The notes under the pieces: generated by a model
Told to the model about the DNA's origin: nothing
The model's input: the letters and a program-made list of their open reading frames with translations, nothing else
Database searches by the model: none
Made by a program: the position numbers and the translations under genes
NCBI GenBank assembly: GCA_025331445.1
Contig: JAIWNE010000103.1
Location: forward strand, 56,183-120,182
Reading direction: 5' to 3'
Source: Blakeslea trispora
Lineage: Eukaryota > Mucoromycota > Mucoromycetes > Mucorales > Choanephoraceae
DNA: 64,000 nucleotides
Shown: in pieces, positions 4,652 to 35,339 of the stretch
Position numbering within the stretch: position 1 is the first letter of the stretch
Layout of the letters: every line of letters begins with the position of its first letter

Positions 4652-6487
4652 TTAAGAAATGCAACAAGTAGCAGGTGTTTGATTAGAGGAAGAGTGAGTA
4701 GACGATGAGTTGTTTAAAAAGACAGACCATTGACTCTCGAATCGATCAATACGGGAAATGATCACCAAGACGCGTTCACGGAGAGTACGCATGGCTATCA
4801 GAGAAACCTTTTCATCTTCACTCAAGGGCATCATGTTAATGACCCACCAAGTCAAGATGACTCGATCGCGTTGAGGACCACGTAATGTAGGAGGATCACC
4901 CAAGGCACTTAGCCAAGTAGACATGCTGTCATTAGGATTAGCATTCTTATGACATAATAATTTTTCAACAAAAGCTGTTAGTTCATCAATCATCTCTTCA
5001 GTCGTCTGTTCTTGACGATTCTTGACTGTTTTTTCGGGTATAATAGGGATGTTGTGAGATTGCTGTTGTTGCTGCTGCTGTTGTTGTTGTTGTTGTAATT
5101 GAGGCTTAGATCGTTGAGCAGATAGACCTTGAACATGCATTTGAAGCCAAGGAGCTCGACTAACAGGTGCTTGTGTCTGAGGATGAGCACGTTGAGCCCA
5201 GGATTGACGAGCATTGTTGGGTTCCATGCTAGCATTTGTAGCTTGAGGTCTAACTTGATGGGGCATTGGGCGACCCATGGGTGCGCGAACGGCTGGGTTA
5301 GATCTGGATGCCATACTGGCGGGTCTAGCGATCATACTGGCGGGTCTGGCCATCATGCTGGCGGGTCTAGCGATCATACTAGCGGGTCTGGCCATCATAC
5401 TAGCGGGTTGAGTCATTGTAGTATTCGTAGTAGTGGTCATTGGTCGAACGGAAGGAGATGCAGGTGCAGTAGATAATGAATTGGCAGGTCTTTGTTGTTG
5501 ACGTGCACGAGACGCACTGGCTCTCAAGATCTGTTGTCGTTCAAGCATGTTTTCTTGCTCACCATCAATATCATCAATTCTTTCAATGGAAGCCATATGA
5601 TAACCATCTGTCAATTCATAGTCGAGGACCTTGAAGCGATGCGAGCCAATGGCTTCTACCAAAGAACGACCATCAGGCAAAGTTTGAACATGGGTCAATT
5701 CAAGCATAGTGCCATATTCGTAAAATGGAGCTTGCCCTTCTGATCTGTTTCGACGAGCAATACACATGGCAAATCGACGACGGTTGGACTGCATGATACG
5801 ACGAAGCATAAGACGATAGCGAGGTTCAAACACATGAATGGCACATTTGACATGAGGAAAGGCCAGGTTGCCAATCAACAAGGGAACACGGACATCTTGA
5901 TCAAGCATGGCCAGTGCATCTTCATCAGCTTCTGCATCATCAGCATACAGTTGAGAGAGAATGTCACACAAGATTTTGGCTGGTGGAGGACAGAAATCGA
6001 GATTGTCGCGACAAAAGGGGCAAGAGCGTTGATGGTCAAGTGAGCGAATCAGACAGTTTCTGCAAAAGGTGTGTCCACATGGAGTAGTTGTTGGATTGTT
6101 GAAGCGAGAACAACAGATGGGACATTCGGTGGATGAATCGAGTGTGAGACGTAAAGTGTCGAGTGTTCGAGATGCTTCTGCACTGACTACAATGGCTTGC
6201 AATGCCTGAATAGTGACACTCGGTTGAAGTGCGATTGTATGCAGGCGATCACAAGTAGGTGATATACATTGTTGTGATGAAGCCACACAGGCATGACAAG
6301 CTGTAAAGCCACAAGGCAAAGTGGTTGGTTTATTCAATTTGCCATGACAAGAAGGACATCGAGTGAATGCTTCTACAACTACAGAGGGTGAAAATACATC
6401 GATCTGCTTTTGCTTCTTATTGAATTGTCCTACAGGTAAAGTGTCGACCTGGTCGCGGGATCGTTTATGTTGTTGTATGCTTTGCAC
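4652..6487 (-). CDS. RING-finger and LON N-terminal-domain protein (LONRF-like E3 ligase)
   Basis: The frame covers about 611 codons. A first RING-like motif at about 44-80 (CPSC...PCGFTACHAC...) has Phe where RINGs have the metal-binding His. A canonical C3HC4 RING follows at about 122-160 (CPIC...PCGHTFCRNC...CPFC). A LON substrate-binding (PUA-like) domain runs from about 199 to 310 (VPLLIGNLAFPHVKC, FEPRYRLMLRR). The C-terminal half is low complexity, with four or five copies of ARPASM and an 11-residue poly-Gln, then a helical tail. RING plus LON without protease domains is the LONRF layout, so a ubiquitin ligase for protein quality control is inferred. The frame begins with GTG; an in-frame stop lies just upstream and there is no ATG before the RINGs. 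An AACAG acceptor sits at the start, so a 5' exon with the true start is probably missing from this call. Confidence 0.85.
   Translation of the reverse strand: MQSIQQHKRSRDQVDTLPVGQFNKKQKQIDVFSPSVVVEAFTRCPSCHGKLNKPTTLPCGFTACHACVASSQQCISPTCDRLHTIALQPSVTIQALQAIVVSAEASRTLDTLRLTLDSSTECPICCSRFNNPTTTPCGHTFCRNCLIRSLDHQRSCPFCRDNLDFCPPPAKILCDILSQLYADDAEADEDALAMLDQDVRVPLLIGNLAFPHVKCAIHVFEPRYRLMLRRIMQSNRRRFAMCIARRNRSEGQAPFYEYGTMLELTHVQTLPDGRSLVEAIGSHRFKVLDYELTDGYHMASIERIDDIDGEQENMLERQQILRASASRARQQQRPANSLSTAPASPSVRPMTTTTNTTMTQPASMMARPASMIARPASMMARPASMIARPASMASRSNPAVRAPMGRPMPHQVRPQATNASMEPNNARQSWAQRAHPQTQAPVSRAPWLQMHVQGLSAQRSKPQLQQQQQQQQQQQQSHNIPIIPEKTVKNRQEQTTEEMIDELTAFVEKLLCHKNANPNDSMSTWLSALGDPPTLRGPQRDRVILTWWVINMMPLSEDEKVSLIAMRTLRERVLVIISRIDRFESQWSVFLNNSSSTHSSSNQTPATCCIS
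5325..5405 (-). repeat. in-frame 21-bp tandem repeat (ARPASMx unit)
   Basis: About four near-identical 21-nt units inside the LONRF-like gene encode ARPASM followed by Met or Ile. Alternate units differ at the same position, which suggests duplication of a two-unit block. Confidence 0.8.
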
Positions 6488-7589
6488 TGTTGATAATTCT
6501 CAAAAGAAAAAAAAAAAAAAGAAAAAGAATTGAAGCAAAAATTTTTTTTCCTTGAAAATAATGAATTGAAACAATAGAATCGAAGCTTGAATTGCTTTAA
6601 CTAAAAATAAAATAAAAAAATAGAGTCAATAAATGTCTTGTATTAAAAAAAAAAAAGAAGGAAATTTACAAGAAATGTTATAAATTCACCATATGTGAAG
6701 ATAACTAATGGAAAAAAAAAAAAGAAAAAGAAATAATTAAAAAAAAAAGAAAAAAAAAAAAATTCATTTTTATATATTTTATGCCAAAAAAAAATCGAAA
6801 TTTCGATCGATCTTATTTTTTACATTGAATTTCTCTCTCAGCAATTTACTCCATTTTTAGCATTTACTATTTTTGAAATAACAAACATGGTTGCTTTTTG
6901 ATCTTTCTGATCTTAAAGCCAATAAGAAAAAAAACTCTATCATTACAAAAAAGGCCAAAAAAAAAAAGAATCGATCAAGCGTTAAAAAAGCCCTTTTTTT
7001 TTTGAGAGAGAATCAGAAAGCTTAATTAATTTTGCGTCATTGTCAAAATGGTTTCCTTGTAGTCATGCTATCATTCTTTCTTAATCATTTATCTTGTGAT
7101 CGACAAATCAACCCCGCCCTTCTGAGGGAAATCCTCTTTCTTCATGATCGATAATTACCAAAAGTGTATAAATTTGAGCCTGGCGATAAATCAGTCATTT
7201 TAGGAGTCTCTTCTCTTGCTCTTTATTAGTGGATCGAGCTACTCAAAACGTAGGCTTTTTTTTTTGGGAGATCAGAAAGGACTTTTAGAGCGCTTTTATA
7301 TCAGGAAGGTTTGAACAGAAAACTCTTGTAGTCAAACAAAGTTGGTTTGGAATTGATTTTCATAGTCTTGGGCTTTACAACAGTTTCACGATCAGAAAAG
7401 AGAAGTGTCCGAGTTACACCTATCACGATTCAAAAACCAACACCGACATACATTACCTATCAAAGCGTTTTCGGTGAAATTAAATTAAATCCAAACTGAA
7501 AACAAAAGTTTGAAAGCATGGCCAAAACACGTCCATGATGCAAAACAGATCAAAAAAAGTGTCTTCTTTATTAAAATAAAATAAGAAAA
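6488..7589. other. intergenic region with an orphan TATA-like promoter
   Basis: Many poly-A runs and no open frame. A 14-bp perfect palindrome (ATCGAAATTTCGAT) lies at 6794-6807. A TATA box in good context (GTGTATAAATTTG) is at about 7165, with a CCCCGCCC element about 50 nt upstream, but no coding region follows on the plus strand before the Tc1 relic. Confidence 0.5.
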
Positions 7590-9187: not shown

Positions 9188-10768
9188 TTATGGGCTGGGT
9201 GCACCCAAAAGTTCAATTGGACGATGAGTATAAGCAGGGTGAAGTTGTCTTTCAATATAGGTAGAGAAGGTACTAGAGTTTGTGCCATAGAATGTATGTC
9301 CTTGTGCAGAAATGATGGCATCCACCATAGGAATCAAATAAGACTCTAATTTAACTTTTTCTTGCATGACCTCAATTTTACTAAGCTCCGCCAGGTCATC
9401 CTTAAAATCGGACAGCACAAAGGTGCAGGGGAATACCGCAAACAGCTTGCGTAACAACGGATGTGCCCTTGGTTGAGGGCAGTCCGTAGCAATAAAAACA
9501 GTGGTTTTTGCAAATCGATCGTTCCTGCCGTCGCCAGGCTGACAAGCTAATTGCAATGATTGCGAACGCGTTCCTAAAAACTCCTGGATGTTGGCTGGAT
9601 GTTGTACACGGATCGGCATATCAAAGCCGTCTGTTGCATTCTGATAGTCTTCACGGAGTTGTCTGATTTCATATTCGTTGTTTTCTTTTCGATCTTGATC
9701 ATGCTCTCTGTCGTAGATATTTTCAAGTTCCGACTCCGTCAAGTCCGTAAAGTCATCGACCAACCGGTGAAAGAGATCGTCTATCTGGATAGATGCACGG
9801 ACCTTGAAAAGCCCGTCTCCTACACGGACATGAAGACCCACAAATGAACCAACTCCGCCTAATTTCTCTACAATGCGTGAAGCAACAGTCATCAGTGTGG
9901 GGTTTGTGAAAATCATGTCTTTTCGAACCAGTTTTAGCAGCTCTCTGTGTTCTTCTGTCTGAGCCAAAACACGATAAGAGCCAAAGACGGAACCGAAATG
10001 AAGTACCTTCTCTTCAATCGCTTCCAGTGCTGCCAGTTCAATTCGATTCACAAAACGAGTTAAAGGTGTTTTTGACTCGGGCATATCATAGATGCGATAG
10101 TCGAATGGCGAATAGTCTTTAAAGAGATAGATATCTTTCTCTGTTGCATTCAGATGATCCTGAATCCACTCTAGGCTGAGATCGTCTCGAAAAACAATGC
10201 GTACATGTTTCTGAAGTTGATTGAAATCATAAAAAAACGTCCAAGGAATAGCTGTCCACTGTTTGTAGTTTAGACACTCTGAAGGTGCAGGTTCATTCTC
10301 TCGAATCTGATGACAATAGTCCAGTCCATTTTTTGTCTGCAGCAAGAGACGCTCATACATCTTGTCAAATCTCAGCCATGGAAAAGCTGGGTTTCCTAGA
10401 TAGACAGAAGGCAGCAATAGAGTACGGTTGAGATAGGCAGCCAGCAAGAAGGCATTTTCCAGTTCAATACGTTGGTTGTGAAACCCAGAATGAGGCAAAT
10501 AGGTTACATATTTCTCGTTAGGCGTTACTGAGTGAAACTCAAATGGATCAGGATAGATGACAGGGATGATTGACTTGTTGAGTTCATCTTGCTTTCGAGC
10601 TGGTTTGAAGGAATTGTTTTTAGAGTCATCGCGTCTGACTGAAGGTGGCTGGGTATAGATCCAATAAGCAAGTACAATACAAGAAATCAAGATACAAGCA
10701 ATAACCCCTTTTCTATTTCGTTGCTTGTTAGTTGCAATGATGTCTAGAGGATGAGGTTTTTTGGACAT
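9188..10768 (-). CDS. O-fucosyltransferase-like type II membrane glycosyltransferase
   Basis: An intronless frame of 526 aa from the ATG at 10768; the frame extends upstream only through a TTG. It has a short basic cytosolic tail, a single signal-anchor (GVIACILISCIVLAYWIY, about residues 20-38), a stem, then a lumenal catalytic region. Motifs recall the GDP-fucose O-fucosyltransferase fold: FHNQRIELENAFLLAAYLNR near the donor-site start, GLHVRVGDG in the middle, a FIATDCP segment, and a late SAQGHTFYGTNSSTFSTYIE motif. In this fold such motifs bind GDP-sugar; the acceptor cannot be read from sequence. It should sit in the Golgi or ER membrane. It diverges from the FYRN/FYRC gene across about 300 bp. 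Confidence 0.8.
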   Translation of the reverse strand: MSKKPHPLDIIATNKQRNRKGVIACILISCIVLAYWIYTQPPSVRRDDSKNNSFKPARKQDELNKSIIPVIYPDPFEFHSVTPNEKYVTYLPHSGFHNQRIELENAFLLAAYLNRTLLLPSVYLGNPAFPWLRFDKMYERLLLQTKNGLDYCHQIRENEPAPSECLNYKQWTAIPWTFFYDFNQLQKHVRIVFRDDLSLEWIQDHLNATEKDIYLFKDYSPFDYRIYDMPESKTPLTRFVNRIELAALEAIEEKVLHFGSVFGSYRVLAQTEEHRELLKLVRKDMIFTNPTLMTVASRIVEKLGGVGSFVGLHVRVGDGLFKVRASIQIDDLFHRLVDDFTDLTESELENIYDREHDQDRKENNEYEIRQLREDYQNATDGFDMPIRVQHPANIQEFLGTRSQSLQLACQPGDGRNDRFAKTTVFIATDCPQPRAHPLLRKLFAVFPCTFVLSDFKDDLAELSKIEVMQEKVKLESYLIPMVDAIISAQGHTFYGTNSSTFSTYIERQLHPAYTHRPIELLGAPSP

Positions 10769-11069
10769 GCTGAGATTAGATACATGACTATGAATTTCAT
10801 ACAAAAAGTAGAAAAAAATTTAAATCAGCCTATAAAATGAATGGTGTGACAAGTATTCCTATTTCAGCAAGAGAGAGAAGGAGAGAAGAAAAAAAAAGGG
10901 GGGGGGGAACACCCTTTTGTTTTATATGTACTTGGTGAGACCTTAAAAGACAGAGGGGTGACCTTCTTTTTTTCTGCTGATACACTTGTTTGTTCCTCTT
11001 TTTCTATATGCGAATGATTTATTCTCAAGTATTTTCCCTTTTTCTCTTGTTTTTTTTTATTCTGCACCC
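10769..11069. promoter_or_regulatory. divergent intergenic promoter region
   Basis: A 301-bp gap separates two divergent genes, the fucosyltransferase-like gene (-) and the FYRN/FYRC gene (+). It contains GA-rich and A-rich tracts and a run of eight or nine G at about 10900-10908. Both promoters must lie here; no specific site is recognised. Confidence 0.45.
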
Positions 11070-12318
11070 ATGAATTCAGTTACCAGTCAAGATAAATATG
11101 AGAGGATGAAGCGAAAACTGAGAGAAGCATTTGAGGTTTGATTTTCCTTTTTATCAATGGCTGCATAAAGTCTTATTTGTTTTCTTTCTCTTTTTTTTTT
11201 TATAGCTGAATGAAGCACTTTCGAAAGGCTTTGTTCGAGCCAAAAAGAAGATTCGTACTTTAACTTTTGAGAAAAAGTAAGTCTTTGTGAATTTTAGAGT
11301 ATATGCTTATGCATCCATCTATGTAGTCTTTTATTAGATACTATTGCACGCTTAAATCATTCAATGGCAATCAATGGTGATAATGTAAATGATAGCAATC
11401 CTAAGGGTTATCTAATCGAGACCACAGAAGACAGTAATAGTGAAACCGAGAGTGAGTTAAAGAAATTTCCTTCTACTAAGCTATACTTGATATTCATATT
11501 TTCTTTTTCAAGCATTCATTACTCTTAAGCCTGCTCATTCATTAAGCAGTAAAGAGAGTTCGCAGCCTACATTAACGACAGTAGCTTCTGCACCACCTAA
11601 ACGATCGAAAATTAACCGAGTAAACATAAAGACTCGTCGCGTACAGCCTATTGAAAGGGACAGCGAAGGAAAACCTATTTTGCCACAACAAATTGGTGTC
11701 TTGACTGTCCTTAATCTGGGTACCATAATTACAGACCGTGACACATTTCACAATGAGCGTTACATTTTCCCTGTTGGGTATACGGTGCGCAGAACATATC
11801 CAAGCATGACTGATCCTAATAGCAATACAATCATTACATCAACTATTTTAGATGGAGGTGATGGTCCTCGTTTTCATGTGGTAGCGGCTGATCAACCGGA
11901 TGAGCCAATCATTGCCAACTCAGCTACAGGAGCCTGGACAGTCGTTGTACGTCGTTCAAACGAAATTCGACATCGAGATCACTCAAACTCGGCTAGTGGT
12001 CCTGATTACTATGGATTTAAGCATCCTACCATTGCCAAGATGATCCAAGATCTACCAAATACACGTCACCTAAAGAATTACGTTTGGCAAAACTTTGAGG
12101 AGATGGAACTAAAGGCTGCTAAAGGTGTCATGGCTGCGGCCGAAAAGAAGAGAGACAATTTGGAGCATATGGGCAATGCTAATCGAAAGCCATCTCAGTA
12201 CTTTCCTATAGAAGAATATCACTCTCATCCATATTATGTTCAGCCTTCTCATCCAGTCAGATTAAATCAATCAGATGAAGAGATATATGGATTAGGTAGC
12301 AGCAAGACAGAATCTTGA
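11070..12318 (+). CDS. FYRN/FYRC-domain nuclear protein (TBRG1-like)
   Basis: Four exons keep one frame: 11070-11135, 11206-11276, 11327-11451 and 11513-12318, giving 355 aa. The N-terminus is a short coiled coil (YERMKRKLREAFELNEALSK) with basic patches. An FYRN domain follows from about residue 145 (GVLTVLNLGTI, YIFPVGYTVRRTYPS) and an FYRC domain to about 260 (DGPRFHVVAADQP, ATGAWTVVVRR). The end is Lys/Glu-helical. Coiled coil plus FYRN-FYRC without a SET or JmjC domain matches the TBRG1 class, thought to act in chromatin or transcription control. The third acceptor was chosen (ATGTAG at 11321-11326) because two nearer AGs lead to stops and this one restores a continuous helix. Confidence 0.85.
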
Positions 12319-29172: not shown

Positions 29173-29728
29173 ATGCCCAAGATCAGAACCTCAAGAACGA
29201 AGCGCCCCCCTGAAGGGTTTGACGAAATAGAGCCTACTCTTGAAGAGTTTTCAAGAAAGATGAGAGAAGGTAATGGCAATAAACAGCGCTGTGCACATAC
29301 AATGATTGATTCTCTATTTATTGTAGTCGAGAACGAGTCTCACGAAGGCAAGCGTATTGTGGAGAGCTCTTGGCCTGTTTTCCGTATACACCACCAACGC
29401 TCACGTTATATATATGACTTGTTTTACAAGAGAAAATTAATCTCACGCGAATTGTACGATTATTTGCTCAAAAACAAGTATGCTGACGCCAATCTGATTG
29501 CAAAATGGAAAAAGGTAAATAGAATATGATGTATCATCTGGGAACCCCTCAGACTCATTCATTTAATAGCCTGGATTCGAAAAACTATGCTGCCTGAGAT
29601 GCATTCAGCCCAAGGATACCAATTTTGGTACAACATGTATCTGTAGAGTTCCAAAAGAAAAGTTAGAAGAAGGAAAAATGATCGAATGCGTTCATTGCGG
29701 TTGTAGAGGTTGCGCAAGTGGTGATTAA
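29173..29728 (+). CDS. BUD31: BUD31/G10 spliceosome-associated protein
   Basis: Three exons, 29173-29269, 29327-29514 and 29570-29728, give 147 aa, close to the usual 144. The start is the ATG beginning [20 protein letters not shown]. Highly conserved parts follow: [37 protein letters not shown]. The Cys-rich end is [20 protein letters not shown] then [13 protein letters not shown], where cysteines bind zinc. BUD31 is a core component of activated spliceosomes and helps define the catalytic RNA geometry. The first intron is 57 nt, a multiple of three without a stop, so the unspliced frame stays open; removing it restores the family's spacing between MRE and the HEGKR block. Confidence 0.95.
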
Positions 29729-30145
29729 AATGTGTCAGGTAGAAATAGCGTGTGTAAACAAGGAAGTTACCGTAGAAACAAAGGAAAGACAAGAATAATA
29801 AAAAAAAAAGGGTTTTCCATGGCAACAAATATCCGAATAAGAAAACGAAGATCTTCAAATCATAGCTGCTTTTTCTTTGTCTAATTTAGAGTTTTCTGAG
29901 TCGGCTTTAAAAAAAAATAGAAAAAAAGAAAGAGGGAATAAGAATGTTCTCAAATTTCCAGCCTTATGTGCTTCGAATCAAGGATGAATCCAAGGCTTCC
30001 TATGCATAACTTTGGATCCTTTTTAATATGTACCCCCCTCCTTTTATTTTATCTGCTTTCACTCATCCTTTTTATTGTATAAATAGATCTCTTTTTTCTT
30101 CTTTTTTTTTTTCTTCTTCTTCTATTATCATTTCTTATACTAATC
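29729..30145. promoter_or_regulatory. intergenic and pyrimidine-rich leader before the short calcineurin-like gene
   Basis: The final 80 nt are a CT/T-rich tract followed by ATCATTTCTTATACTAATC just before the ATG, like leaders of other genes here. Upstream DNA has no sequence for a calcineurin phosphatase domain in any frame. Confidence 0.45.
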
Positions 30146-30468
30146 ATGTCTCTTGCTATCATCAACAATAACACTATGGACGAGTTTTCATTAAACGGTC
30201 AAGCTTCATTAGACTCTCACCGTAGACAAATCATAAAAAGAAAGGTACTTGCTATTGGAAAGATGTCAAGATCCTATACTGTCCTGAAAGAACATCCTCA
30301 ACTTGTGCAACAACTGAAGGCCCTTAGCAATGGTCGATTACCTGTTGGTACTTTGGCTTCTGGTGAAAAGGGTATTCGAGAAGGTATATGTGCGCGCCAA
30401 TAAATGATGACACATATTGTTCCCTTTTTTTCTCCTTTTGTCTAAAAAAAGAAGCATCTACTTGTTAG
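30146..30468 (+). CDS. stand-alone calcineurin A-like calmodulin-binding protein
   Basis: An ATG-initiated frame with donor GTATAT at 30384 and acceptor AAAAAAAG before 30452 gives about 84 aa (30146-30383 and 30452-30468); unspliced it would end at 30403 with 85 aa. After 25 unfamiliar residues, the rest closely follows the region of calcineurin A that lies C-terminal to the phosphatase domain. It reads RRQIIKRKVLAIGKMSRSYT, VLKEHPQLVQQLKAL, then GRLPVGTLASGEKGIRE. In calcineurin A the first segment is the calmodulin-binding helix. No phosphatase or calcineurin-B-binding sequence is present upstream, and the flanking genes are unrelated. It may bind calmodulin or compete with calcineurin, or it may be a gene fragment. 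A pyrimidine-rich leader and good start context favour expression. The comparison is from memory of the family. Confidence 0.7.
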
Positions 30469-30857
30469 CCATCATTCAAAAGACAATGAGCTATGAACTA
30501 TCAAAACTGAAGGAACAAAAAGACCTTGCACCAAATTTATATCATCACCAACCAACACCCAACATTAAAATGGGATCAAGAGAGGGTCAAGTCTAAAACA
30601 ATCAAAAAAAAATATCTGTATATACATTTTCATTAGCACATTTACTTCATATATTCGCTTCTTTTTTTTTTATTCTTTTCAGTCTATTTATTCCAATTGT
30701 TAAACACCAATAAAGCCTAAACATTTCGATCAAACAGTATCACACTGAATGCACATTTCTCCCCTGAAAGTAATATGACAAACCAAAATGCTTTATTTGT
30801 TATGTGAGAGATGGAAATAAATAAACAATTATGATGAAAATGTACAAATTGAAAAAA
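30469..30857. other. intergenic between convergent genes
   Basis: AT-rich 3' flanks of the short calcineurin-like gene (+) and EAF1-like gene (-), with AATAAA-like poly(A) signals on either strand. No further gene is seen. Confidence 0.5.
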
Positions 30858-33800
30858 TTAACCTAAATTTGTATTATTATTATTATTAGTCGTACCACTG
30901 TTGGCACTAGTAGTATGAGCACTTGTGTTTGCATTGTTATTGCCATTATTGGTATTCATATTGGTATTTGTAGGAGTGCTTCTCTGAAGTAGCTGTTGTT
31001 GTTGAAGTTGTTGTTGCAACTGTAGTTGCTGCTGCATTTGAACTGCTTGTAGCCGCTGTTGCTGTTGAACTAACAATTGCTGCTGTTGTTGAGGAGTTAG
31101 GCTGTTCAGCATTTGTTGTTGCAACTGTTGCTGAAGCTGAGGTGAGAGCCCCATCGCATGGTTATTGTTAGCATTATTACCGCTATTGTTGTTAGTGTTG
31201 CCGTTTGCATTATTCCGTAGCTGTAATTGGGCAATATATCGTTGCAAATTGGCCTGTTGATTCAATGGTAATTGGCCAAGCGTTTGGATTGGATATCCAA
31301 GTTGTGCTAGCTGTGCCGCAAGAGCCAAAGCATTCGCTGTCTGTTGCTGTTGCTGTGGTTGTTGTGTGTGTTGCATAGCAGGAGATGCTTGTTGAGCTTG
31401 ATTGACGTTATTGTCTGTTGCATTTGTGTTGGTATTAGTGAGATTGCTATTGTTGTTTGCATTACTCATTTGTGCTTGTAGCGCTAGAATGACAAGGAGA
31501 GAGAAAAAGAAAAGCGAATAAGTATTTAATGACACAAAATGTATATAATTCATTTTACCTTGAGCTTGAGAGGCTAGTACATTGGCAAATCTCTGTTGCA
31601 TAGGCATTGATGTTGGCATACGGACTTGGCCTTGCTGTGGTAGTCCCTGTTGTTGCTGTTGCTGTTGTTGTTGTTGAGCAGCAGCAGCAGCAGCGGCCAT
31701 CAATGCCATTTGTTGTTGACGCAATAAGTGTAGTTGTGCAGCGGGGTATCGACTTTGTATGTTGTTTGCAACTGGACTGTTTGCAGCATTAGCAGCACTT
31801 ACTGCATTTAATTGAGCCTGTAGTTGAGCTTGTAACTGTTGTTGAGCTATCATCTGCTGCAATTGCTGCTGTTGCATCTGAGGTTGCTGCTGTGGTGACT
31901 GTTGCTGTGATTGAGATTGTTGTATCTGTTGCTGTGATTGGGATGGAGGTTGCTGCACTTGAGGCTGTGGGGTTTGAGATGGCGGTTGCTGCACCTGTTG
32001 CGATGCTTGTGGTTGCTGCTGTTGAGCAGCCTGTTGTGCTTGAATAGCCGCTTGCTGTTGAGCAGTAATAGCCTGTTGTTGTTGTTGTTGTTGTTGTACG
32101 GTCGATGGTGATTGAGCTTGCTGTTGTGCTTTTATTTGTGTTTGATGCTGAGTGAGAGCAGATGGTTGATTGGCTTGGAAAGGTGGTGTGAGCTTAGGTA
32201 GTCCCCTATTAGTCACTGCTGTTTGTGTAGTATTCTGGTTTACTGCTACAGTTGAAGTCCTCATTTGAGATGCAGCAGCAGCGGCGGCGGCGGCGGCAGC
32301 TGCTGCTGCTGCTGCTGCTGCTACTGATGAAGATGGTTGAGCTAAACCGTTTGCCTATATAGAATAAGTTGATTGTATTAGTACACGCCAAAAAAATGGA
32401 TAAACATAAACAAATAAACATAAACAAATAGAAGAACAGAAAATCCTTACGTTAGAAGCAGCAAAATTCTGCGACAACTGTCTTTGCTCTATCAAAGCCT
32501 GTGCCATCTGTCTTTCTCTTTGTATCTTATGAAGACTTAACTCCATAGCAGAAGGCAATCTCTGACCTTGCGAACTCATACCATGTGTCTCTATCACACT
32601 ACGTGGAGGTGCAGAAATAGCTAGGTAGAAAGGAAAAAGTCAGTATCGAACTAAGCTTATACTAAAATCTATTTTAGGCTTTTCGTTCTTCTTACGTTTA
32701 GATTTGATAGAATCTTCTCTTTTCTTTTGTGTCTTTTTGATAGCCTCAAACATATTGTACTGTCTCTGCCTCTTTTTTGCAGAATCGAACTTGAGGGGTA
32801 CGGGTCTCCTTGAGAGATCCTTCTTCATCTTCATTACATAAGCTAAAATGACAGTGAACATCAATAGGTTACTTCTTTTTCTTTTTAACTTTGCTTACTT
32901 GAGTTGATCTGACCGGAAAGAGAAGTGAGATTATTCTGCTTCCATCTTTCGTAACACTCCCAAGGAGTACGCTTCCCACCAATAACAGATGCTCGTGTAG
33001 CATTGAAAGCATCGCAGATCAAATCCCAATTGAAAGAATATTGAAGAATGAGTTGGATCAGACACAAATCGTCATCTTCCGACCAATTGCCAATGTGTTT
33101 CGTTCCATGCGGAGGCTGAGGACTAGACGGCTGGGTGATGAACATCTCTTTTGATTTTTTGGGTGCAAACAGAGCTATTAAAAAAACAAATAACGTGAGT
33201 GATTATGTAATCTATTGTTACGCAGAACAACTCACAATCATTCTGAGGAATATTATCATGATATGGTACCAGCCCTTCTTGCTCTTCTCTATCCGGATCT
33301 TGGATTTGCTCAAATTCATCATCGGAAGCAGTCATTTTGTATTCACCATTGTGTTGCCGTTTGTTGGAAAAGCGCTTGTTCTTTTGAAACTTGATTTTTT
33401 GAGTAGAAAGTTTAAAAGGAGTGATGCGGTTGTATTCGGCCTCATCAAAGTAAGCATCATTGCCAATACAGTCAGGGTCAGGTGCTGTGTACAGTAATAA
33501 TTCTGGTAAAAAGGATGTCATATCGGCCTCCATATTTTCGTCAAATGAGAATGTGAGCTGGTCAGAAGTCAGGCTTTGAATGATCTGTCTATACTGGTTA
33601 GCGATTTCAGAAGACACTGCATTGTGTTGACCTTGATAATCGTCATCTTCGTCTTCCTCATCTTCATCTATGACTGATGATTCGGCAGTACCTTTATCGC
33701 CTGTCTCCAAGTCCATGGATGTCATTGAAGCGTCTTGCAGCTCAAGAGCAGGTTCTACCTCATTTGTACTTACAGCATCTTGTTGCTCGGATGGCTCTGC

Positions 33801-35339
33801 CAGTGCATCTTGAATCTGTTTCTCCTTATCATCTGGCTCTACTTCCATACGCTCATCCAAAGGTATGATTGGTTTTGTCTGTATTCTGACATTTCAGAAT
33901 AATGTACAAATCTCGCAACAACATACACTTACCTTTATACACAAACTCGACTTATCTTCTGACTTATGCCATGCTTCAACCGCTTTCGCTAATACATATG
34001 CACCTGCCATTTTCCATTTTCTTTCTTCCTTGAAGTCTGTTCTCATCCATTTCTATGTTTTGAAACAAGACTATACATCAGTATATAATGGTGATAAAAA
34101 ACTAGTCTTCGTCGCCTCCTCATCTCTGTCTCTCTCTCTCTTTTTACCATTTCGTCCACAAGTAAATCCCAGTGCGTCTTCGTTCTAGGAATCATTTTTT
34201 GCCGCTTTGGCTGTCTTTGACTCCATAGGTTTTTCTTTTTCAAATCCTCAATACTCGTGATGGTTTTGATTGACTTTAATTCATCCCTAGCAAGCTTTTT
34301 TGTGTATCTTTTGTTTAATATGGTGTATCGAGCAGATTGAAACACTGATGAGACAGACTTACCATCCAATCATGTGTAGTCAAAACTTTCCTAGCCTGCT
34401 GGAGCTGTTTATACAATGGTTGAAATTGTGCTTTTAACTGCCAAGCATACAAATCAAACCTTGATGGCTTATCATTTCGTTCATCCACTAGTTTATGCCC
34501 ATTATACATTTGTACAGGATGATGATTTGACTCAGATCGTCTTGGCAGTGTTGTTGTTAAATAAGATACTGGCGTTTTCCGCTTTATTTGATTCTCCTTG
34601 TTTGTTTAGAGAGGAAAGTACAAAGGATAAGATGATATGCACATAATGACATCCATGTCTAATGATACTATTACTTACGGGATTCTCTATCACTTGTTCA
34701 GGCACTGGATCCGTTAAAGGCCCTTCCGGCTCCTGCTCAGTTTTAGATTCCGTGTTGCTTGTAGTTGTGTTGTCATGATTGTTGTCTTCAAGATCTGTGC
34801 TATCGATTTTGTCGTCTGGCAACTGCATGGATACTGCTTCAATTTCTGCTGCAGGCAATAGTGATGGAATTATACCATCTCTGTAATATACAATTCACAA
34901 TTAGCTTGAAACCGCTTTGACTCAAATTATATAATCACCTGATTTGATGGCGCTCAAGAAATACTTTCTCGCGTAAAAGGTCTCTTTCTGATAAGTTTTC
35001 CTTGTCGTTAAGGAACGCCATCACGTCTTCTTTTTCTTTTGTCAGCAAAAAAAGCTCTTTGAGTAAGCGCACTCTGCGCGTCTCAATACTCCTAGATGGT
35101 CATCGTGAGCCTTCAAGTGGGTTTCTTTTTCTTTTCTTTTTTATAAAAACTATAGCAAACCTTTGACTTTCCCTTCGTTCGTTTTGTGCCTTAGAGCGTA
35201 AGCTTTGGATGTCAATCTGAAGGAAGCGATGATGAGAAAATGTCGAGCCCTAATCGAAAAGTCAACTCACCGGTTGGTTATGGTCCGATTCGTCAACAGA
35301 TGAGTATGTATTGGTGGGTAAGGAAGTATCTTTAGTCAT
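30858..35339 (-). CDS. EAF1: EAF1/VID21-like scaffold of NuA4 histone acetyltransferase (HSA and SANT domains)
   Basis: A long multi-exon gene. The first exons are 35271-35339 and 35161-35216, then an exon starting near 35091 (RSIETRRVRLLKELFLLTKE) and one from about 34880. An HSA domain spans 34190-33950, with HWDLLVDEM spliced to KWMRTDFKEERKWKMAGAYV; in the family it recruits actin and Arp4. An acidic stretch follows. A SANT/Myb domain lies at 33110-32900 (GNWSEDDDLCLIQLILQYSF, NWDLICDAFNA, TPWECYERWK). The C-terminal third is Gln-, Asn- and Ala-rich, with poly-Gln blocks and one Ala tract near 32270-32330. HSA then SANT without a Swi2/Snf2 ATPase identifies fungal Eaf1/Vid21 rather than Swr1 or EP400. 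It acts in the nucleus as the platform that assembles NuA4. Internal exon edges were not all resolved. Confidence 0.9.
31680..32340 (-). repeat. CAG/GCN trinucleotide tracts coding poly-Gln and poly-Ala in EAF1
   Basis: Dense CAA/CAG codon runs, plus a GCN run near 32270-32330 that encodes about 17 alanines within the EAF1-like C-terminal region. Slippage-prone; lengths probably vary between strains. Confidence 0.8.

What the first reader, a model, noticed from the sequence alone, without database searches (positions are those of the whole stretch)
30146..30468. A stand-alone calcineurin A calmodulin-binding tail without the phosphatase
The predicted 84-85 aa protein matches, from about residue 26 to the end, only the calcineurin A region after the phosphatase domain: the calmodulin-binding helix (RRQIIKRKVLAIGKMSR) and the following GRLPVGTLASGEKGIRE block. 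It has its own ATG, a pyrimidine-rich leader and a plausible intron. No catalytic domain lies upstream. Such a micro-protein could sequester calmodulin or modulate calcineurin, which controls dimorphism in Mucorales. I do not know of a description of it.
Basis: partly seen in the sequence, partly recalled or inferred. Interest (0 to 1): 0.75.

Follow-up and report, generated by a model that had tools for sequence, protein, structure and literature searches.

The report
Calcineurin tail as a separate gene
This fungus carries a small, separate gene that makes only the calcium-switch tail of the enzyme calcineurin, without the enzyme itself; relatives of the gene are found in many related moulds, so it is probably a working regulator of calcium signalling.

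Summary
Window 30146-30596 (+) encodes a two-exon, 121-aa protein (85-nt phase-1 intron 30384-30468), not 84-85 aa; it matches a 121-aa Choanephora protein end to end. Homology to calcineurin A (CnA) starts at residue 1, not 26: exon 1 equals one CnA exon, beginning at the same Met and ending at the same intron position and phase as in the three full CnA genes of this genome (very probably Blakeslea trispora). No phosphatase match lies on this contig. Stand-alone relatives make up 51 of 83 database hits, 32 of them from 22 named genera (all Mucorales, recalled). The 33 tested form one clade (100/97) on the CnaC side of the CnA tree. They keep the calmodulin-binding helix and the region after it, where the autoinhibitory segment (AIS) lies; the phosphatase, nearly all of the CnB-binding helix and the autoinhibitory domain (AID motifs 0 of 33) are gone. 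It is a conserved CnA-derived microprotein, not a relic or artefact. Most likely it binds Ca2+/calmodulin and damps calcineurin in trans, perhaps also docking on calcineurin. Binding, expression and phenotype are untested. Nine searches of a partial library showed no description.

The parts
30078..30086 (+). TATA-like element TATAAATAG, about 60 nt before the ATG, followed by a pyrimidine-rich leader
   Evidence: read directly from the sequence; promoter function not tested
30146..30383 (+). exon 1, codons 1-79 and first base of codon 80; corresponds to one CnA exon (last residues of the CnB-binding helix, linker, calmodulin-binding helix, block after it)
30221..30292 (+). calmodulin-binding helix, residues 26-49 (RRQIIKRKVLAIGKMSRSYTVLKE), with anchors I30, V34, I37, Y44, L47
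   Evidence: aligned with human CnA; anchor positions from PMC6151454 passages; predicted helix 24-49 in the Choanephora orthologue
30329..30382 (+). block after the helix, residues 62-79 (NGRLPVGTLASGEKGIRE), taken by position as the AIS region; motif P.G.L..GE in 32 of 33 stand-alone proteins and 1 of 84 CnA tails
   Evidence: AIS role in calcineurin from PMC6506691 passages; the exact AIS limits were not seen in a source
30384..30468 (+). 85-nt GT..AG intron, phase 1, same position and phase as an intron in the three full CnA genes of this genome
   Evidence: the same junction is read through into Gly in 19 database ORFs (17 by script, 2 by eye)
30469..30596 (+). exon 2, rest of codon 80 to residue 121 and TAA; stands where CnA has the AID exon (no FEEA, no DxxNER) and ends in a family-specific tail TPNxK..REGQV
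30709..30714 (+). AATAAA, possible polyadenylation signal
   Evidence: read directly from the sequence

Best explanation
A conserved trans-acting microprotein made from the regulatory tail of calcineurin A. Shown by sequence: it descends from a DNA-level partial copy of a CnaC-type CnA gene that kept the exon with the calmodulin-binding helix and the block after it, together with the intron downstream; the frame starts at the Met at the head of that exon; the AID motifs are lost, a new C-terminal motif is shared by most members, and the gene occurs in 22 other genera. Inferred: the protein binds Ca2+/calmodulin through residues 26-49 when Ca2+ rises and so competes with full calcineurin (and other calmodulin targets) for calmodulin. 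At rest its AIS region may also occupy the LxVP substrate groove of the CnA-CnB dimer. The net effect would be to raise the threshold for, or shorten, calcineurin signalling. It has no catalytic domain and no AID to block the active site.
For: Same exon start, same downstream intron position and phase 1 in the window gene and in the three CnA genes of this genome. 51 of 83 profile hits (E up to 1) are of this type, 32 of them from 22 named genera (two of the 51 classed by eye). The 33 stand-alone rows tested are one side of a branch, 100/97, and lie with 31 CnaC-side CnA rows apart from 53 others, 100/96. Calmodulin anchors: position 30 Ile in 32 of 33 (Val in 1), V34, I37 and L47 in 33 of 33, position 44 Tyr 21, Leu 8, Phe 4. 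Position 32, Asn in 68 of 84 CnA tails, is Lys or Arg in 32 of 33. P.G.L..G in 32 of 33. AF2 of the Choanephora orthologue: 55 of 121 residues at pLDDT 90 or more, helices 24-49, 51-60, 74-97. Identity to the own CnaC-type exon over 54 codons 0.54/0.81/0.46 by codon position, 17 codons synonymously different, which fits purifying selection. Reported affinities of calcineurin or its calmodulin-binding region for Ca2+/calmodulin run from about 16 nM to about 1 pM (PMC7456046 passages).
Against: No binding, expression, localisation or phenotype data. The genome also has a calcipressin (RCAN-like) gene, so an inhibitor of calcineurin is not missing. Mucor has nine calmodulin genes (PMC3764228 passages), which could make a calmodulin sink ineffective. 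Stand-alone proteins vary more than the CnA tails used here (mean entropy 0.72 against 0.54 in the helix, 0.93 against 0.66 after it; anchors 0.30 against 0.33; sets not matched for relatedness). Net helix charge +6.9 against +6.1 on average, with the same range 5 to 8. The Phe410 anchor position is Leu in 8 of 33. Strict PxIxIT docking motif in the C-terminal part: 0 of 33. The C-terminal motif has no explanation here; 8 of 33 lack [ST]PN.
Confidence: 0.6

Rival explanations
1. Calcineurin-docking regulator: the AIS region, not calmodulin binding, is the effector. The protein sits in the LxVP groove of CnA-CnB in trans and blocks or selects substrates; Ca2+/calmodulin removes it.
For: A pure calmodulin sink would need only the helix, yet P.G.L..G is kept in 32 of 33, with a Glu giving P.G.L..GE in 32 of 33 against 1 of 84 CnA tails. 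In calcineurin the AIS leaves the LxVP pocket when calmodulin binds (PMC6506691 passages).
Against: In trans the segment loses the high local concentration it has in cis. The AIS limits were not seen in a source (PMC4783466 not held). No complex was modelled. Strict PxIxIT 0 of 33.
Confidence: 0.25
2. It binds calmodulin but acts elsewhere: the conserved C-terminal motif recruits another partner and calmodulin regulates that, so calcineurin is not the target.
For: [ST]PN in 25 of 33 and an EG[HQ]V-like end in 20 of 33, against 3 of 84 and 0 of 84 CnA tails.
Against: No known motif assigned; no Pfam or NCBIfam family for the protein; the motif is absent in several gene models.
Confidence: 0.15
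3. Pseudogene or decaying fragment of a CnA duplicate.
For: It is a truncated paralogue without catalytic domain.
Against: Open frame and the same short protein in 22 other genera, with 16 invariant columns among 37 sequences; third codon position is the most diverged against each of the three own CnA exons.
Confidence: 0.02
4. Assembly break or annotation error that removed an upstream phosphatase-coding region.
For: None found.
Against: BUD31 lies directly upstream; no N in the window; none of 32 phosphatase matches on contig C6; same short protein in other deposited genomes.
Confidence: 0.01

Closest known systems
Calcineurin A catalytic subunit, CnaC type (Mucor CnaC P0088; own genome contig C201)
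   Same: Exon 1 of the window gene equals one exon of CnA: same first Met, same end intron and phase, calmodulin-binding helix and the block after it
   Different: No phosphatase domain, only the last residues of the CnB-binding helix, no AID motifs, own C-terminal motif, 121 aa against 511-549 aa for the nearest complete CnaC-side records
trans-microProteins (definition in PMC5381583, passages)
   Same: Small protein with its own gene, derived from a larger multidomain protein by duplication and loss of domains
   Different: Well-known cases are mostly plant dimerisation domains (recalled); here the kept part is a calmodulin-binding regulatory tail in early-diverging fungi. Interference with the parent is not shown
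RCAN / calcipressin (Rcn1, CbpA)
   Same: Proposed outcome, endogenous control of calcineurin (recalled; PMC4358225 seen only in a search listing)
   Different: No calcipressin family hit for the window protein, and a separate calcipressin-like gene exists in this genome
PEP-19 / neurogranin type calmodulin buffers (recalled)
   Same: Small protein thought to tune calmodulin availability
   Different: Those use IQ motifs and are animal proteins (recalled); no IQ family hit here

Membership tests
Calcineurin A catalytic subunit | Metallophosphatase catalytic domain | tested here: not met
   0 Pfam families in the 121-aa protein at E up to 0.01; none of 32 PF00149 matches on contig C6
Calcineurin A catalytic subunit | Calcineurin B-binding helix | tested here: not met
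   only the last residues (MSLAIIN aligned with MLLTILN) are present
Calcineurin A catalytic subunit | Calmodulin-binding helix with conserved anchors | tested here: met
   by sequence only; pattern in 31 of 33. Binding itself not tested
Calcineurin A catalytic subunit | Autoinhibitory segment (AIS) between helix and AID | tested here: inconclusive
   the block at that position is kept, P.G.L..G in 32 of 33 and 84 of 84 CnA tails, but the exact AIS limits were not seen in a source
Calcineurin A catalytic subunit | Autoinhibitory domain (FEEA...DxxNERLP) | tested here: not met
   0 of 33 stand-alone proteins, 84 of 84 CnA tails
trans-microProtein | Small protein (140 aa at most in PMC5381583) encoded by its own transcription unit | tested here: inconclusive
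   121 aa with own ATG and splice sites; transcription not tested
trans-microProtein | Evolved from a larger protein by duplication and domain loss | tested here: met
   shared exon borders and intron phase, one clade on the CnaC side
trans-microProtein | Engages the parent protein or its partner and alters its function | not testable with these tools
   no binding or activity data
RCAN / calcipressin | Calcipressin domain PF04847 | tested here: not met
   0 Pfam families at E up to 0.01 for the window protein
PEP-19 / neurogranin | IQ motif | tested here: not met
   0 Pfam families at E up to 0.01; short motifs can escape such a scan

The most novel reading that the evidence does not exclude
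Mucorales have split calcineurin's calcium gate off as an independent gene: a CnaC-derived protein carrying the calmodulin-binding helix plus the AIS region works in trans on calcineurin holoenzymes, docking at the LxVP groove at rest and capturing Ca2+/calmodulin on stimulation, as an order-wide extra layer of control over the pathway that governs hyphal-yeast dimorphism.
Probability: 0.25. Interest if true: 0.85.

Novelty: new variant of a known kind. Interest (0 to 1): 0.62.

Why it matters
Calcineurin controls hyphal growth and dimorphism in Mucor, which has three catalytic A genes, one B gene and nine calmodulins (PMC3764228, passages). A further CnA-derived gene that makes only the calmodulin-responsive tail would be an unrecognised component of that pathway. 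It may have been overlooked because it is short and most of the named records call it hypothetical, uncharacterized or unnamed, a few by a phosphodiesterase name. It also gives a natural test of whether calcineurin's calmodulin-binding and AIS regions work in trans, a question usually approached with peptides (recalled).

Tried and rejected
Rejected models of the 3' end: unspliced reading (85 aa, ends GICARQ) and acceptors at 30451 or 30454 (79-85 aa in all six pairings with three donors). With the acceptor at 30468, donors at 30372 and 30390 give 117 and 123 aa, with a deletion or an insertion that relatives do not have; the donor at 30384 gives the conserved 121 aa.

Considered and rejected: pseudogene and assembly break (see rivals). 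Replacement for a missing RCAN: a calcipressin match above the curated cut-off lies at C227:49088-49279. A PxIxIT docking motif in the C-terminus: strict pattern 0 of 33; a relaxed pattern that I widened after seeing the sequences matches 20 of 33 (such as PNIKMG, PNYKVA, PNYKIT), so it is only a lead. The sigma-70 promoter scan does not suit a fungus and gave nothing above shuffles. Pfam and NCBIfam found no family for the protein.

Other short CnA-tail records exist that keep AID motifs, such as P0057 (unnamed), P0058 (Umbelopsis, 156 aa) and P0074 (Drosophila rhopaloa, 151 aa). I took them as partial gene models or fragments of full CnA genes; that was not tested.

Absence of the gene from Umbelopsis, Mortierella, Phycomyces, Backusella or Syncephalastrum is not shown; I only saw no stand-alone record of them in the lists.

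Rows dropped: tree and motif counts use 33 of 52 stand-alone sequences (the window and the 32 named of 51; 19 without an organism name left out) and 84 CnA tails: 81 of the 88 records P0084-P0171, from the 120 listed of 206, plus 3 own. Seven were skipped as too short or without the exon-start motif; P0172-P0203 were not used. Of the 117 rows, 99 are different. The CnA tails came from a search whose query includes the AID, so 84 of 84 for the AID is expected. The own CnA proteins were spliced by a script; two junctions each in C201, C249 and C227 stayed unresolved, all outside the tail, and at least one further C249 junction outside the tail looks wrong.

Full report
What is there. Reading the window and testing nearby GT-AG pairs (three donors, three acceptors) gives one gene model that fits relatives: ATG 30146, exon 1 to 30383, an 85-nt intron, exon 2 from 30469 to the TAA at 30594-30596, 121 aa. 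Choanephora cucurbitarum (P0001) and Gilbertella (P0002) have 121-aa proteins that are 94% identical to it over the first 80 residues and have the same kind of C-terminus. A TATA-like element lies at 30078-30086 and AATAAA at 30709-30714.

Surroundings. Upstream is BUD31 (Pfam PF01125, E 3.4e-73, + strand, stop at about 29726-29728); downstream is a minus-strand gene with glutamine-rich runs and a Myb-like domain in the ORF 32885-33202. In the 37.2-Mb assembly the metallophosphatase family PF00149 gave 32 matches at E up to 0.001, none on contig C6, which holds the window. The 80-aa peptide matched four places: the window and contigs C201, C249 and C227, each of which carries a CnA gene whose exons can be read. 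A Blakeslea trispora CnA record (P0159) comes from a contig of 233,280 bases, the length of C227, and is identical to C227 over the columns of the tree. The genome is therefore very probably Blakeslea trispora, Mucorales (lineage). This name is an inference.

Origin. In the three CnA genes of this genome the tail exon starts, after a phase-1 intron, with codons read as I-T-(T or D)-M-L and ends with a phase-1 intron after GLRK, GIKS or GLKS, followed by A-I-T-(T or S)-F-E-E-A. The window gene starts at the equivalent Met and has its intron at the same place in the same phase, followed by A-I-I-Q. This points to a DNA-level partial copy, not retroposition. Among the 51 database relatives, 19 run into Gly exactly at this junction, as reading through the intron would give (17 by script; P0047 and P0048 by eye). 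In Apophysomyces the N-terminus MSLAILNVCPDELN is still recognisable as CnA MLLAILNICS-EEL.

Distribution and tree. The profile search gave 83 proteins at E up to 1; I class 51 as stand-alone type (49 by script, P0055 and P0078 by eye), 26 as CnA exons or fragments and 6 as unclear. The 32 with an organism name come from 22 genera: Choanephora, Gilbertella, Mucor, Pilaira, Parasitella, Pilobolus, Hesseltinella, Absidia, Rhizopus, Chlamydoabsidia, Mycotypha, Halteromyces, Gongronella, Cunninghamella, Benjaminiella, Cokeromyces, Apophysomyces, Sporodiniella, Lichtheimia, Phascolomyces, Zychaea and Dichotomocladium. That these are Mucorales is recalled; only Blakeslea was looked up. In a tree of 117 tails (99 different, 65 columns) the 33 stand-alone rows are one side of a branch with support 100/97. 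A 100/96 branch puts them with 31 CnA rows, including the record named CnaC of Mucor (P0088) and own C201, apart from 53 rows that hold own C227 and C249, Umbelopsis and Glomeromycotina (kinds of organism from the names). The program warns of few columns and some long rows (Dichotomocladium, P0171, R. stolonifer), so the exact attachment on the CnaC side is unsure.

What is kept and lost. Calmodulin anchors of human CnA are Ile396, Ile400, Ile403, Phe410 and Leu413 (PMC6151454, abstract and passages). By the alignment they are I30, V34, I37, Y44 and L47 here. Position 30 is Ile in 32 of 33 (Val in one); V34, I37 and L47 are 33 of 33; position 44 is Tyr 21, Leu 8, Phe 4. Asn at position 32 in 68 of 84 CnA tails has become Lys or Arg in 32 of 33. 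In the block after the helix P.G.L..G is kept in 32 of 33, and P.G.L..GE is in 32 of 33 against 1 of 84 CnA tails. AID motifs are in 0 of 33 against 84 of 84. Exon 2 still starts A-I in most (A 29, I 26 of 33) and Phe of FEEA stands at its column in 8 of 33, so exon 2 looks like a decayed AID exon with a new C-terminus: [ST]PN (searched over the whole tail) in 25 of 33, EG[HQ]V-like end in 20 of 33. Three of 33 lack residues 4-7: the two Rhizopus and the Sporodiniella proteins.

Structure. AlphaFold2 on P0001 with 37 sequences gave mean pLDDT 73.3, pTM 0.51, and helices 24-49, 51-60 and 74-97; block means are 84-96 from residue 21 to 90 and below 55 at both ends. In the PDB alignment residue 77 pairs with human alpha CnA 444, so the third helix starts about where the distal helix of human calcineurin (441-458, PMC7456046 passages) starts; the sequences do not align beyond that point.

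Selection. Over 54 codons, identity to the own CnA exons by codon position is 0.54/0.81/0.46 (C201), 0.56/0.76/0.41 (C249) and 0.54/0.72/0.37 (C227) (one gap placed by hand). With conservation over many genera this fits purifying selection. The stand-alone rows vary more than the CnA rows (mean entropy 0.72 against 0.54 in the helix, 0.93 against 0.66 after it); the sets are not matched for relatedness.

How it most likely works. In calcineurin, Ca2+/calmodulin binding frees the AIS from the LxVP pocket and moves the AID away from the catalytic site (PMC6506691 and PMC7456046, passages). Reported affinities for Ca2+/calmodulin run from about 16 nM to about 1 pM (PMC7456046, passages). A separate protein with the same helix should be a strong Ca2+-dependent calmodulin ligand, and so a competitor of calcineurin. 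Retention of the block after the helix, which by its position between helix and AID I take as the AIS region (order of domains in PMC11662586, passages; the paper that defines the AIS is not held), suggests a second contact, possibly the LxVP groove of the holoenzyme. Loss of the AID says it is not an active-site inhibitor. These steps are inferred; only anatomy, origin and conservation are shown.

Literature. Nine searches of the held open-access library were made: calcineurin with Mucor cna names; microprotein with calmodulin-binding; autoinhibitory segment; cooperative autoinhibition; trans-microProtein; Mucorales small protein; six locus tags of the orthologues; dominant-negative calmodulin-binding domain; Blakeslea with calcineurin. 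In the listings (only the top papers of each) and in the passages I read, none describes this protein. The main Mucor study reports three CnA genes, one CnB and nine calmodulins, and the word truncated has no occurrence in its main text (PMC3764228, passages). The locus-tag search returned 0 papers. Most subscription papers are not held, so this does not show that nothing is in print. Some records call these proteins 3',5'-cyclic-nucleotide phosphodiesterase, but full-length CnAs carry the same name, so it looks like a borrowed label.

Verdict. A real, conserved and, as far as searched, undescribed CnA-derived microprotein family. The kind is known (microProteins, calmodulin ligands); the parent, the retained module and the lineage are new to me. 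Function is inferred, not shown.

Noticed in passing
L028/L029 (G000:C227:48772-49279) and L027 (G000:C227:61500-66500): The calcipressin (RCAN-like) gene and one calcineurin A gene lie within about 15 kb of each other on the same contig.
   Followed up: no
database proteins P0017, P0020, P0022: Parasitella parasitica, a parasite of other Mucorales (recalled), has three divergent records of the stand-alone tail protein, while this genome has one; their C-termini lack the EG[HQ]V form. Whether they are three genes of one strain was not checked.
   Followed up: no
window 29173-29728, + strand: BUD31 splicing factor gene with introns directly upstream of the finding.
   Followed up: partly
window 30858-33893, - strand: ORFs with long glutamine- and alanine-rich runs and a Myb-like domain, possibly one gene for the NuA4 subunit Vid21/Eaf1 (recalled resemblance only).
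   Followed up: no
window 4652-6499, - strand: RING finger plus LON substrate-binding domain protein.
   Followed up: no
window 9188-10819, - strand: Protein with a GDP-fucose protein O-fucosyltransferase domain.
   Followed up: no
window 11491-12318, + strand: FYRN and FYRC domains, as in some chromatin proteins.
   Followed up: no
database names of P0049, P0051 and full-length CnAs P0091, P0101, P0115, P0117: Calcineurin A proteins and stand-alone tails are named 3',5'-cyclic-nucleotide phosphodiesterase in several records, an apparent propagated misannotation.
   Followed up: partly
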